Virus record (IMG/VR): IMGVR_UViG_3300013132_000093 | Location: 1 to 42,185 of that record | Direction: 5' to 3' (one strand) | Source: a virus | DNA: 42,185 nt | Shown: positions 33,360 through 38,264 of the stretch, piece by piece | Layout: every line of letters starts with the position of its first letter | Numbering within the stretch: position 1 is the first letter of the stretch | Translations under genes and position numbers: made by a program | Notes under the pieces: generated by a model | Databases searched by the model: none | What the model was told of the DNA's origin: nothing | Seen by the model: the letters and a program-made list of their open reading frames with translations, nothing else

Positions 33360-34121
33360 ATGAAAATATTACCTCTTTTTAAAAGTCATTACAGCATAGG
33401 CAAGTCAATTCTAACTCTAGATAAAGCAGGTTCTTCTTCAAAAGAAGGGTCTTCCTCAATCATAGATATTACCAAAGAAAACAAATTAGAACAAGCATTT
33501 TTAGTAGAAGAAAATATGTCTTCTTTTCTTGATGCTTTTAAGAACTTTAGCTCAATTAAGATACCATTTTTTTATGGACTTAGGCTAGACCTTTGCCCAG
33601 ATATAGATGATAAGAGTGAAGAATCTTTAAAGAAGTCAAGCAAGATTATTATCTTTGCCAAAAATGGCAGCGGATACAAGAAGCTAATTAAGATATTTAG
33701 TATTGCCGCCACAAATGGTTTTTATTATACACCAAGGATAGATGAAAAGACCTTGACGGAAGAGTGGGATGAAACTAGCCTAAAATTATGCGTTCCATTC
33801 TATGACTCGTTTTTATTTAATAATACGATGTCTTATTCCTTGTGCTGCCCAGAATTAAAGTTCACAAAGCCGACATTCTTTATTGAGGACAATGATCTAC
33901 CATTCGATGGCATCATAAAAAATAAAGTATTCAAATTCTGTTCAGATCAATACGAGACAGTAAACGCTAAAAGTATTTATTACAATACCAGAGAAGACTT
34001 TAAATCGTATCTAACTTTTAGATGCATTAATAATAGAACAACTCTTAATAAACCAAATCTTGAACATATGTGTAGCGCAGAGTTTAGTTTTGAAAGCTGG
34101 AAGGAGGCGGATTCTCTATGA
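33360..34121 (+). CDS. DNA polymerase III alpha, PHP-like N-terminal domain (separate protein)
   Basis: 253 residues. MKILPLFKSHYSIGKSILTL is the PHP opening (H10), IPFFYGLRLDLCPD is the G-x-x-x-x strand, and SGYKKLIKIFSIAATNGFYY with TPRIDEKTL matches the DnaE spacing G-Y-x-x-L ... F-Y-x-x-P-R-I. CSAEFSFESWKEAD ends near where DnaE continues into the palm. Most metal ligands of active PHP domains are not obvious, so it may be structural. It is ATGA-coupled to the exonuclease gene, and the polymerase core follows, so the three probably form one complex. Confidence 0.75.
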   Translation: MKILPLFKSHYSIGKSILTLDKAGSSSKEGSSSIIDITKENKLEQAFLVEENMSSFLDAFKNFSSIKIPFFYGLRLDLCPDIDDKSEESLKKSSKIIIFAKNGSGYKKLIKIFSIAATNGFYYTPRIDEKTLTEEWDETSLKLCVPFYDSFLFNNTMSYSLCCPELKFTKPTFFIEDNDLPFDGIIKNKVFKFCSDQYETVNAKSIYYNTREDFKSYLTFRCINNRTTLNKPNLEHMCSAEFSFESWKEADSL

Positions 34122-34756
34122 TGGAAAATCTTCTTCGTTACGATAAAGATAAAGTCTATACTTTTATTGACTTAGAAACAGAGAACTTGTGTCTTAGTTT
34201 CATCAATAATCGACCTTGGCAGTGCGGCATGATTAGAGTCAAAGGTGATGAGATACTAGAGACTTCTGATATTTATATCAAATGGGATAAATCAATTAAC
34301 GTCAGTAAAGAAGCTGCACAGATTACCCGATTTGACCAATATAAGTATAATAAAATAGCAGTCCATTCCAGCCAAGCTATTAATACTATTTGTGACTGGC
34401 TAGAGAAATGCGATTATATTGTTGGGCATAACGTCCTGAATTTTGATATTTATCTTATTAAGGATTATTACAAAATGTATAGCAAAGAATGGAAGCATTT
34501 AGTAAATAAGATTATAGATACTAATTGCCTTGCTAAAGGAGTTAAATATGAGATTCCTTATTCCCAAGAAATGGATTTAACTGAATATCAGTACCGAGTA
34601 CTAAATGAAAGAAGAAAAGGTGTAAAAACCAATCTTACAAGTCTTGGGAAAGACCATAACATAGATCACGATTACGAAACCCTGCACGACGCACTTAACG
34701 ACCTTCACTTAAATATTAAAGTATGGAACAAACTCAAATTCCAAGTAGCAATATGA
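34118..34756 (+). CDS. DnaQ-type 3'-5' proofreading exonuclease
   Basis: 212 residues. VYTFIDLETENLC holds Exo I (D18, E20), DYIVGHNVLNFDIYL Exo II and DYETLHDALNDLH Exo III (H-D-A-x-x-D). These are the DEDDh residues for two-metal removal of mismatched nucleotides. Its ATG overlaps the PHP gene stop and its TGA overlaps the polymerase ATG, both as ATGA. PolC carries an exonuclease inside its PHP domain; here the same three units are separate genes in the order PHP, exonuclease, core. Confidence 0.9.
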   Translation: MMENLLRYDKDKVYTFIDLETENLCLSFINNRPWQCGMIRVKGDEILETSDIYIKWDKSINVSKEAAQITRFDQYKYNKIAVHSSQAINTICDWLEKCDYIVGHNVLNFDIYLIKDYYKMYSKEWKHLVNKIIDTNCLAKGVKYEIPYSQEMDLTEYQYRVLNERRKGVKTNLTSLGKDHNIDHDYETLHDALNDLHLNIKVWNKLKFQVAI

Positions 34757-37071
34757 ATTTTGTAAAAGACTTCCAAAAGTATGATCTCGGTCTTCATGGC
34801 TTAAGGATGCCGGTCTTTGAAATTGATCAAAGGCATAAAGCAAAGCTAAACCTCGTCTCTTCTACCTCTAATTATGATTTCTTGAGGGCTTTAGCAAGAG
34901 AAGGTTTCCGTAAGCTTAATCTTGAAAAAGGAAATGACTTATATAATAAATATATTGAGCGCATCAATTATGAGTTACAAATCTTGCAAGAGTTGGAGTT
35001 TATTGATTACATTATTCTAATCTGGGATGTAATTAATTATTGCAGAGAAAACAATATCCCAACTGGCCCCGGAAGAGGATCTTGCGCTGGTTCTCTTCTC
35101 TTATTTCTCATTGACGTAACCAAAATTGACCCCATTAAATACGAATTATTCTTTGAGCGTTTTATTTCCAAAGCGCGAGCAAAGAAGACGGTCATTGATG
35201 GAATAACCTATTTTGATGGCTCGCTATTTCCTGATGTTGATCTTGATATCTGTTATTATAATCGGCACAAGGTAATAGCTTATCTTGAAGAAAAATTTAA
35301 AGGTAAGACTTCTAAAATCCTTACTCTTAACACTCTAAGCTCCAAACTTTGCATAAAAGAATCTGGCAAAGTTGTTGCAGAGAAGCAAGAGAGCGAGATG
35401 AATGATGTTTCCTCTTATATTCCCAAGCTTTTCGGACAAGTTAAAAGTCTTGAAGAAGCAATAGAAGAGAGCGAAAAGTTTACTGAATGGGTTGGCGATA
35501 ATGATGAAGTTTATAAAATCGCCCTTAAACTTCAAAACTTAAATAAGAATAAAGGCGTTCACCCCTCTGGACTTCTCCTAGCTCACTCTCCTCTTGAAGA
35601 ATCTTGTCCAGTAGAACTATCTTCAGATAAGCAGATCGTTTCTAGTTACGACATGAATAATGTCACTGCTTATAATATCAAGCTTGATCTACTTGGTTTA
35701 CGAGGCGTTTCTGTCGTTGATGACGTTTGTAAATCACTTGGTATTAGATATGAGGATATTGATGTAAATGATGTTTTTATTTACCAGCAATTGCAGGATT
35801 TTAAATTACCTCATGGTCTTTTCCAAATTGAAGCAGAAACTAACTTTAAAGTCTGCCAAAAAGTAAAGCCTAAAAATCTAGAACAGTTAAGTGCTGTCTT
35901 AGCATTGGGCAGACCTTCTAGTCTTTCTTTCGTTGAATCTTACTCCAAGTATACAAATCATAATCAAATTGAATTGCCAGATATTGAATCTCAAGAATTA
36001 AAAGATATTCTATCTAAAACTGGCGGCAGTATTCTATTCCAAGAAACTGCCATGCAAATAGCTCACGTTGTATTTAAATTATCTTTGGACGAAGCTGAAT
36101 TAATTAGACGCGCATGCGCGAAAAAGAAACGCGAAGAGATGGCTCAATTTGAGAAGATTATTCTTGATCAAGGAGCTAAATTAAACATCCCAAAATCTGC
36201 CGAATTTTATTGGAAAATTCTTGTGGCTAGTGCGGACTATGGCTTCAATAAGTGTCTTCATGGAGAGACTCCGGTTGTTACAAAAAGTGGGATTAAAAAC
36301 ATAAAAGATGTTGAAATTGGTGAATTTGTTAAAGCCTATGATGTTAATAATAATAGTAATCATTTTGTCCGAGTGAATGATGTCATTGTAGGATCAAAAG
36401 AGCTATTCGAAATAGAAATGGAAGATGGAAGAAAAATCAAATGTTCTTTAGATCATAAATTCCTATGCAGTAATGGCAAGATGCTTTCTATTAAAGAAAT
36501 TATCGGAAACGATAACAAAATAGTCTTTGACGAAAAAGAAGAATATTTTCTTGATGTTCCGGGATATGAAGGGTTATATCAAGTATCTAATAATGGGAAT
36601 ATAAAAAGCTTAAGCAGAAAATTTAAAAATAGGACTTACGGTGGAGAAATCATGAAAGGATCAATTGACCGTGATGGGTATAAAAAAGTGCTACTTATAA
36701 AGGACAAAAATAAAAAGAAATATTTTGTTCATCGATTAGTGGGGTTAGCTTTCATTGAAAATGACCTATCACATCCAGTAATAAACCATAAAAATGGAAA
36801 TAAGTTAGATAACAACGCTGATAATCTTGAATGGGTTACTATATCTCAAAACAATATTCACGCATTACGAAATGGATTAAAAAAACCCAGTTTTAAACAC
36901 CTACTAGCCTATGTTGGAAAGGGAGAAAATCATAATGTAGCAAAAATTAACGAAGTACAAGTAAAAGAAATTAGAAAACTCAGAAAAGAAGGGCTCTCTT
37001 TAAAGAATCTTTCTCAGCAATATAATTTACATCAAACAACTATTTCTAAAATTTGTACCGGCAAATCTTGA
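34753..37071 (+). CDS. dnaE: Pol III alpha core, N-terminal part, fused to split-intein N-half and HNH endonuclease
   Basis: 772 residues from ATG 34753, an ATGA overlap (a 10-codon longer frame is open but less likely). Residues 1-500 are the polymerase: IPTGPGRGSCAGSLLLFLID, the palm acidic motif PDVDLDI (D161, D163), GVHPSGLLLAH and YDMNNVTAYNIKLDLLGLRG, ending ADYGFNK. Residue 501 (Cys) starts the N-intein (CLHGETPVVTKSG; block B CSLDHKFL), about 93 residues. Then comes a NUMOD4-HNH endonuclease: VPGYEGLYQVSNNGNIKSLS, HRLVGLAFIEN, VINHKNGNKLDNN and NLEWVT, ending in an HTH-like repeat. The stop separates it from the C-half. Splicing in trans would rebuild the polymerase. Confidence 0.88.
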   Translation: MNFVKDFQKYDLGLHGLRMPVFEIDQRHKAKLNLVSSTSNYDFLRALAREGFRKLNLEKGNDLYNKYIERINYELQILQELEFIDYIILIWDVINYCRENNIPTGPGRGSCAGSLLLFLIDVTKIDPIKYELFFERFISKARAKKTVIDGITYFDGSLFPDVDLDICYYNRHKVIAYLEEKFKGKTSKILTLNTLSSKLCIKESGKVVAEKQESEMNDVSSYIPKLFGQVKSLEEAIEESEKFTEWVGDNDEVYKIALKLQNLNKNKGVHPSGLLLAHSPLEESCPVELSSDKQIVSSYDMNNVTAYNIKLDLLGLRGVSVVDDVCKSLGIRYEDIDVNDVFIYQQLQDFKLPHGLFQIEAETNFKVCQKVKPKNLEQLSAVLALGRPSSLSFVESYSKYTNHNQIELPDIESQELKDILSKTGGSILFQETAMQIAHVVFKLSLDEAELIRRACAKKKREEMAQFEKIILDQGAKLNIPKSAEFYWKILVASADYGFNKCLHGETPVVTKSGIKNIKDVEIGEFVKAYDVNNNSNHFVRVNDVIVGSKELFEIEMEDGRKIKCSLDHKFLCSNGKMLSIKEIIGNDNKIVFDEKEEYFLDVPGYEGLYQVSNNGNIKSLSRKFKNRTYGGEIMKGSIDRDGYKKVLLIKDKNKKKYFVHRLVGLAFIENDLSHPVINHKNGNKLDNNADNLEWVTISQNNIHALRNGLKKPSFKHLLAYVGKGENHNVAKINEVQVKEIRKLRKEGLSLKNLSQQYNLHQTTISKICTGKS
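36253..37071 (+). mobile_element. Split-intein N-half with fused NUMOD4-HNH endonuclease
   Basis: The intein part covers about 36253-36531 (Cys1, block A CLHGETPVVTKSG, block B CSLDHKFLCSNGK). The endonuclease covers about 36532-37071 and contains NUMOD4 (GYEGLYQVSNNG), HNH (HKNGNKLDNN, NLEWVTISQNN) and a terminal helix-turn-helix (LSQQYNLHQTTISKI). It interrupts the conserved polymerase motif FNK/SHA. If the TGA at 37069 were TGG, the endonuclease would run four residues more (WAHVK) to a TGA overlapping the C-half ATG. Confidence 0.8.
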
Positions 37072-37082
37072 GCTCATGTAAA

Positions 37083-37196
37083 ATGAAATTATTATCTATT
37101 AAAAATATTAAATCAATTGGAGTACAAAAAACATATGATCTTGAAGTTAATCATAGTGATCATAATTTTTATGCTAATGGATTAGTCACTAGCAAT
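37083..37196 (+). mobile_element. Split-intein C-half (38 aa)
   Basis: 38 codons ending ...LVTSN with Asn last, then TCT (Ser+1) at 37197. The length and the block F sequence (KTYDLEVNHSDHNFYANGLV) are typical of natural C-inteins of gp41/NrdJ-type split inteins. The penultimate residue is Ser where His is usual. Confidence 0.82.
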
Positions 37197-38264
37197 TCTC
37201 ACGCAGTAAGTTATGGAGCGTTGGCTGCTATTACTGTCTATCTCAAATTCAAATACCCCCAGCAGTTCTTCTTGTCTCTTCTTAAAATGAGCAAGCATGA
37301 ACCAGACCCAATTGGAGAAATTTCTAAAATAGAGAAGGAGCTAGTTTATTTTGGTATTAAACTTTTGCCGCCACATTTGTTAAAATCAAAAGACGAGTTC
37401 TGTATTGAAGACGATAATATACGATTCGGCTTGCTGTCTGTAAAAGGTATTAGTGAAAAAACCATTCAAGCTGTCAATCAATTTAGAGGAGAGTTTAAGA
37501 ATAAGTTTGATATTTTTGAAGCTGCTTCTCAAGCAAATTTAAATATAGGAGTCCTTTGTGCCTTGATCCAAGCAGGGGCACTTGACGGCAATTTCAAGCA
37601 ATCAAGAAGCAAGATAGTATATGAAGCACAGCTTTGGAACATATTAACTAATAAGGAAAAAGTTAATGCAAAACTGTTTGCAGAGAATTTCGAGTACGAC
37701 TTAGTTAAAATCCTTCTACATATGAAGGATAGCAAAGACATTCAAAGTAAACCTTACATCAAAGAATCAAGATTACAAACTCTCAGGACTAAAGCAGAGC
37801 CTTATAAAAAGATTTACGAGATCAATAGTAAATCAGAAAGCTTTGCAAATTGGTTCTATGAGAATTCTATTATTGGGTATAGTGTTAGAAATAAATTAAG
37901 AGAAGTCTTCATCTCAAAGAAAGATGATCTTGTTTATATTAAAGACATTGCAGACTTCGGAGAGAAAGACGAAGTATCATTTATAGGCACCATTCAAGAA
38001 TGCAAGTCTGGAGTCTCTAGAGAAAAGAAGACTAGGTACTTCAAGATGCAAATCTCTGATGAAACTGCTACAATAAATACAATGATCTTTGCTGATAAGA
38101 TTGATGAAATGCAAAGTCTCAATAATAAAATGCCCAAAGAAGAGGATATCGTTATCGTTGTAGGGCAAAAGTTTGGAGACTCTGTTTTTGCTAGAACCGT
38201 AGCTATTCAAACTCACACTGTTTACACAAAACTTTCGCAATTAAAAGCCGAAAAAAATAATTGA
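37083..38264 (+). CDS. dnaE: Split-intein C-half fused to Pol III alpha C-terminal part
   Basis: 393 residues from ATG 37083 (the longer frame from 37053 adds MYRQILSSCK). Residues 1-38 are the C-intein: MKLLSIKNIKSIGVQKTYDL then NFYANGLVTSN (blocks F-G), with Ser+1 starting the polymerase. The rest is Pol III alpha: SHAVSYGALAAITVYLKFKY, LLPPHLLKSKDEFC, RFGLLSVKGISEKTI (HhH-like), and an OB-fold VSFIGTIQECKSGVSREKKT with YFKMQISDETATINTMIF. No beta-clamp motif is obvious. The frame differs from that of the N-half, so the gene is truly split. Confidence 0.85.
   Translation: MKLLSIKNIKSIGVQKTYDLEVNHSDHNFYANGLVTSNSHAVSYGALAAITVYLKFKYPQQFFLSLLKMSKHEPDPIGEISKIEKELVYFGIKLLPPHLLKSKDEFCIEDDNIRFGLLSVKGISEKTIQAVNQFRGEFKNKFDIFEAASQANLNIGVLCALIQAGALDGNFKQSRSKIVYEAQLWNILTNKEKVNAKLFAENFEYDLVKILLHMKDSKDIQSKPYIKESRLQTLRTKAEPYKKIYEINSKSESFANWFYENSIIGYSVRNKLREVFISKKDDLVYIKDIADFGEKDEVSFIGTIQECKSGVSREKKTRYFKMQISDETATINTMIFADKIDEMQSLNNKMPKEEDIVIVVGQKFGDSVFARTVAIQTHTVYTKLSQLKAEKNN

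What the first reader, a model, noticed from the sequence alone, without database searches (positions are those of the whole stretch)
34753..38264. Pol III alpha broken by a split intein with HNH endonuclease fused to the N-half
The polymerase motif FNK/SHA is divided: after FNK an N-intein begins at Cys, followed in frame by a NUMOD4-HNH endonuclease and a stop. The C-intein (38 aa, ending LVTSN) starts in another frame at ATG 37083 and continues as SHAVSYG. Established knowledge: fractured genes with natural split inteins and nearby endonucleases are known (gp41, NrdJ, IMPDH types). The variation here is that the endonuclease is attached to the N-half and translationally linked to the C-half.
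Basis: partly seen in the sequence, partly recalled or inferred. Interest (0 to 1): 0.85.

Follow-up and report, generated by a model that had tools for sequence, protein, structure and literature searches.

The report
Split intein carrying its own endonuclease
A virus has its DNA-copying enzyme encoded in two pieces that should be stitched together by a split protein-splicing element, and one piece also carries the DNA-cutting enzyme that appears to have recently spread this element into the virus from a distant relative.

Summary
A DnaE-type polymerase gene is broken at FNK/SHA. ORF 34753-37071 encodes polymerase, a 94-aa N-intein starting at Cys, then an in-frame NUMOD4-HNH-HTH endonuclease and a stop. 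A second ORF in another frame (ATG 37083) encodes a 38-aa C-intein ending SN, then SHA... polymerase. A frameshift error is very unlikely: two in-frame stops and a frame change separate the halves, and two other IMG/VR contigs (L167, L228; about 45% identical) have the same IntN-NUMOD4-HNH ORF followed by a separate IntC ORF. Over a dozen other lineages carry inteins at this exact site: contiguous, split without endonuclease, or split with a free-standing endonuclease gene. So this is a new variant of the known 'fractured gene' split inteins, with the endonuclease fused to IntN instead of standing free. Splicing and cleavage remain inferred.

The parts
33360..34121 (+). Separate gene for the PHP-like N-terminal part of the polymerase alpha subunit
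   Evidence: Pfam PHP 2.6e-11; NCBIfam polC/DnaE N-terminal region; a separate gene in the relatives too
34118..34756 (+). DnaQ-like 3'-5' exonuclease gene
   Evidence: Pfam RNase_T 1.8e-11
34753..37071 (+). N-half precursor: polymerase N-extein, IntN, NUMOD4-HNH-HTH in one ORF (the ORF is open from ATG 34723)
34753..36252 (+). Polymerase N-extein, ending ...GFNK
   Evidence: NCBIfam polc 5.8e-98 to residue 511; PDB DnaE 2hpi/3e0d
35892..36252 (+). Replaced (co-converted) tract: about 55% nt identity to L001 against 97% outside
36253..36534 (+). IntN, about 94 aa: Cys1, block B CSLDHKF
   Evidence: TIGR01445; model matches Npu DnaE IntN 4qfq
36541..36690 (+). NUMOD4 DNA-binding motif
   Evidence: Pfam 2.4e-13
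36724..36855 (+). HNH_3 nuclease (VHRLV, NHKNGNK, NLEW)
   Evidence: Pfam 6.5e-8; I-HmuI 1u3e 1.1e-15
36964..37068 (+). C-terminal helix-turn-helix
   Evidence: Pfam HTH_3 1e-3; confident helices in the model
37069..37086 (+). Junction: TGA stop at 37069; next in-frame TGA at 37084 overlaps C-half ATG 37083 (ATGA)
   Evidence: sequence
37083..38264 (+). C-half precursor: IntC plus polymerase C-extein
37083..37196 (+). IntC, 38 aa, ending ...LVTSN, followed by Ser+1
   Evidence: TIGR01443 1.3e-5; 71% to the L167 IntC
37197..38261 (+). Polymerase C-extein (HHH and OB parts)
   Evidence: Pfam HHH_6 1.3e-16
37197..37250 (+). Downstream flank enriched in mismatches to L001 (17/54 against 37/1011 beyond), probable end of the conversion tract

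Best explanation
This is a mobile, naturally split class-1 intein in a phage DnaE-type replicative polymerase, inserted at FNK/SH. Two proteins are made from adjacent ORFs: polymerase(N)-IntN-[NUMOD4-HNH-HTH] and IntC-polymerase(C). IntN and IntC associate and splice in trans (Cys1 and Ser+1 nucleophiles, terminal Asn), giving a continuous polymerase and releasing an IntN-HNH:IntC complex. The HNH part, translated only as an extension of IntN, acts as the homing endonuclease: it cuts intein-less alleles of the polymerase gene in co-infecting phages, and repair from the intein-bearing genome copies the whole cassette (IntN, HNH, IntC) with flanking sequence. The window appears to be a recent recipient of such an event from an L167-like lineage. 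Shown by sequence: anatomy, split, fusion, recurrence in three lineages, flank replacement. Inferred: splicing, cleavage, translational coupling.
For: Domains and catalytic motifs on both halves. The same fused IntN-NUMOD4-HNH ORF plus separate IntC ORF in L167 (IntN 45%, HNH 47%, IntC 71%) and L228; the three fused HNHs form one clade with 93% SH-aLRT. No ATG, GTG or TTG codon from the end of IntN into NUMOD4, so no separate start for the HNH. The model of IntN-HNH matches Npu DnaE IntN (4qfq, TM 0.79 by target) and I-HmuI (1u3e), with confident IntN, HNH and HTH parts. L001 and L002 are 97% identical, intein-less and contiguous. Upstream tract: window+L167 99/97, AU p=0.00045 against the L001 clade, while the preceding 390 aa are 98% identical to L001.
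Against: No splicing or cleavage data. The window HNH has probably lost its last five residues to a TGA and may be weakened. The penultimate intein residue is Ser, not His (shared by this clade; also so in Npu DnaE, from memory). The exact donor is not in hand (57-58% aa at best). The short downstream tract is not closer to L167 than to L001. No reads were available.
Confidence: 0.85

Rival explanations
1. A contiguous HNH-containing intein in one ORF, made to look split by sequencing or assembly errors.
For: One extra A before ATG 37083 plus TGG instead of TGA at 37069 would give one frame.
Against: Needs two independent errors within about 15 nt. L167 and L228 show the same separate ORFs, with about 600 nt in between in L167, and other lineages at this site are also split.
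Confidence: 0.03
2. A real split gene, but a dead end: the halves work as two subunits without splicing, or the endonuclease is inactive and the element is decaying.
For: The HNH probably lost its last five residues; a phage gene can be split by an endonuclease and still work as two peptides (cited in PMC10448857).
Against: Both intein halves keep their catalytic blocks and are conserved across lineages. Flank replacement argues that homing worked recently.
Confidence: 0.08
3. The diverged flank is an assembly chimera of two phages in one sample, not a conversion tract.
For: No reads; single contig; IMG/VR peptide scans of tract and IntN found no near-identical second copy.
Against: Both switch points bracket the intein site and the tract keeps the gene in frame. 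The intein and endonuclease themselves do not depend on it.
Confidence: 0.06
4. Readthrough of TGA plus a -1 frameshift makes some single-chain precursor.
For: AAAATGA lies at the junction.
Against: Two recoding events would be needed; the junctions of L167, L228, L036 and L110 differ; TGA ends 16 of 44 genes here.
Confidence: 0.02

Closest known systems
Fractured genes with natural split inteins (Dassa et al. 2009, cited in PMC7090010; AceL NrdHF, PMC7891396)
   Same: Phage gene split at an intein at the usual endonuclease position, about 94 + 38 aa halves, endonuclease between the halves
   Different: There the endonuclease is an intervening separate gene (GIY-YIG in AceL NrdHF); here it is a C-terminal fusion to IntN and of the NUMOD4-HNH family
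Cyanobacterial DnaE split inteins (Npu/Ssp DnaE)
   Same: Same host protein; IntN fold and sequence nearest among solved structures (7qil, 4lx3, 4qfq)
   Different: Insertion three residues downstream (FNK/S instead of Y/CFNK, the latter from memory), Ser+1, carries an endonuclease, in phages
I-HmuI-type HNH homing endonucleases
   Same: NUMOD4-HNH, 1u3e match 1.1e-15
   Different: I-HmuI is intron-encoded; here fused to IntN
Contiguous inteins at the same site (Rhodococcus phage Peregrin; L111, L114, L117, L153)
   Same: Same FNK/SH site
   Different: One ORF, no endonuclease

Membership tests
Naturally split class-1 intein | IntN with Cys1 and block B; IntC with blocks F/G ending Asn, then Cys/Ser/Thr | tested here: met
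   TIGR01445, TIGR01443; C1, CSLDH...TSN/S; penultimate Ser instead of His
Naturally split class-1 intein | Halves encoded by two ORFs at the usual endonuclease position (IntN about 100, IntC 35-40 aa; PMC12707363) | tested here: met
   94 and 38 aa, different frames, two stops between
Naturally split class-1 intein | Trans-splicing activity | not testable with these tools
   needs protein work
Fractured gene arrangement | Host gene split at the intein with an endonuclease lying between the halves | tested here: met
   HNH lies between IntN and IntC coding sequence
Fractured gene arrangement | Endonuclease is a free-standing ORF | tested here: not met
   In frame with IntN, no start codon near NUMOD4; met in L058, L138, L116
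NUMOD4-HNH homing endonuclease | NUMOD4, HNH motif, helix-turn-helix | tested here: met
   last five residues probably missing
NUMOD4-HNH homing endonuclease | Cleaves the intein-less allele | not testable with these tools
   indirect support from flank replacement
Cyanobacterial DnaE split intein allele | Insertion before CFN with Cys+1 | tested here: not met
   Insertion after FNK with Ser+1 (sequence); the Npu/Ssp site is from established knowledge

The most novel reading that the evidence does not exclude
A split intein that is itself a complete mobile element: the endonuclease is part of the N-intein chain, so trans-splicing releases a two-chain homing endonuclease (IntN-HNH:IntC), and the element moves between distant phage lineages as one cassette, caught here soon after a transfer with co-conversion.
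Probability: 0.7. Interest if true: 0.68.

Novelty: new variant of a known kind. Interest (0 to 1): 0.6.

Why it matters
How contiguous, endonuclease-bearing inteins turn into split ones is usually argued from scattered end states. This one insertion site in one phage polymerase family holds nearly every state: empty, contiguous mini, split bare, split with a free LAGLIDADG or EDxHD-like gene, and split with endonuclease fused to IntN. It also offers an intein-less relative 97% identical to a newly invaded genome. The order of events, the homing target and the conversion tract become directly testable, and the IntN/IntC pairs are new candidates for protein-ligation tools.

Tried and rejected
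A peptide-pattern scan for the converted tract in IMG/VR found nothing; an alignment-based scan then found L167. A genome-contig scan with IntN gave only four weak loci, not followed up. The crAssphage cr115_1 terminase+HNH hit (93% coverage) is a spurious joined match with no IntN. Bacillus phage G, Moorella phage MTATph1 and Streptomyces phage Birchlyn hits that start inside IntC are uninterrupted polymerases; of the four looked at, only Rhodococcus phage Peregrin has an intein at the site. The final scan with the IntN-HNH alignment gave no fourth fused member among the hits inspected. The nine literature searches turned up no description, in the passages read, of an endonuclease fused to the N-half of a natural split intein; Dassa 2009 itself is not held, so novelty is judged without its full text.

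Full report
What is there. The window is a whole 42,185-base IMG/VR virus record with phage-type replication genes (DnaB-like helicase, primase, UvsX-like recombinase, PDDEXK nuclease). The polymerase alpha subunit is encoded in pieces: a PHP-like gene (33360-34121), a DnaQ-like exonuclease (34118-34756), and the polymerase core, which is further broken at FNK/SHA. The N-half ORF runs to TGA 37069-37071 and contains polymerase to FNK, a 94-aa IntN from Cys at 36253, then NUMOD4, HNH_3 and a helix-turn-helix. The C-half starts at ATG 37083 in another frame with a 38-aa IntC ending TSN, followed by SHAVSYG.

Split or artefact. In the N frame the codons after the stop read A H V K, then TGA at 37084, overlapping the C-half ATG (ATGA). 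Several related endonucleases end in (K/T)(S/T)WxHV/I, so the ancestral ORF probably ended there and TGG became TGA. A single-ORF intein would need both the stop and the frame changed. Two other contigs carry the same layout: L167 (IMGVR_UViG_3300037205_000062), with IntN 45%, HNH 47% and IntC 71% identical to the window and its IntC ORF about 600 nt downstream, and L228 (IMGVR_UViG_3300049919_000418), whose N ORF ends KSWKHI and whose stop overlaps the IntC start (TGATG). The three fused HNHs form one clade (SH-aLRT 93, not starred), so the fusion most likely arose once. There is no ATG, GTG or TTG from the IntN end into NUMOD4: the endonuclease seems to be made only as an IntN extension.

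The site. A scan with the C-half gave 52 loci, of which 49 have an uninterrupted FNK-SH junction. Intein searches then showed contiguous mini-inteins (L111, L114/L115, L117, L153; Rhodococcus phage Peregrin), split inteins without endonuclease (L036, L110, L112), split with a free LAGLIDADG gene (L058-L061, again ATGA-coupled to IntC), split with another kind of free nuclease gene (L116, L138-L140, L149, L238), and one where such a nuclease is fused to IntN (L150). I call that nuclease EDxHD/Vsr-like by its look only: Pfam gives just weak NUMOD3, MTES_1575 or DUF559 matches, and none for L116.

Recent movement. L001 and L002 are 97% identical to the window at the DNA level on both sides but intein-less. 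Identity collapses between 35892 and the insertion site (about 55% nt) and is lowered for about 54 nt after it (17/54 mismatches against 37/1011 beyond; Fisher p 9e-11), then returns to normal. The upstream 390 aa are 98% identical to L001; the tract is 46% to L001 but 58% to L167, and clades with L167 at 99/97, with the L001 clade rejected (AU p 0.00045). The same stretch is 92-100% conserved among L001 and its intein-less neighbours, so fast evolution in place is a poor explanation. Co-conversion of flanks is an established sign of endonuclease-driven homing (PMC3943268). The donor itself was not found.

Structure. AlphaFold2 of IntN-HNH (18-row alignment) gave confident IntN, HNH and HTH parts and a poor NUMOD4 region; Foldseek matches Npu DnaE IntN and I-HmuI. 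The IntN/IntC tree is poorly resolved; it joins the window with L167 at 82/83.

Assessment. It works like a homing, trans-splicing intein, and by sequence it is a split class-1 intein with a NUMOD4-HNH endonuclease. It departs from described fractured genes in having the endonuclease fused to IntN. Splicing, cutting and translational coupling are inferred. The library searched yielded no description of this layout, but the original fractured-gene paper could not be read.

Noticed in passing
L116 and L117, around 5283 and 6176: Related contigs (76-82% nt) with nearly the same intein: contiguous in L117, split by a stop-endonuclease-ATG cassette in L116, joined exactly at GAA/CAA. A before/after pair for intein splitting or rejoining.
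   Followed up: partly
L150, 3952-4974: A different (DUF559/Vsr-like) nuclease fused in frame to IntN at the same polymerase site, with IntC in a separate ORF: apparently a second, independent IntN-nuclease fusion.
   Followed up: partly
L167, 5160-5790 and 2026-2847: An MT-A70-like methyltransferase ORF with one in-frame stop lies between N-half and C-half; a free LAGLIDADG gene sits just upstream of the polymerase.
   Followed up: no
L062-L065 and L128: Split intein in a UvsW-like helicase (VDE/C...N/CHK) with an intervening putative endonuclease gene.
   Followed up: no
L118 and L119: Polymerase A-type genes with split inteins; a small DUF559-like nuclease lies between the halves in L118.
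   Followed up: no
window 33360-34756 and relatives: The PHP domain of the alpha subunit is a separate gene across the polymerase family, with the exonuclease gene between it and the core; in many relatives further DNA is inserted between these genes.
   Followed up: no
window, gene starts: Only 5 of 44 gene starts have a Shine-Dalgarno-like motif, so translation may rely on coupling or on a host that does not use it.
   Followed up: no
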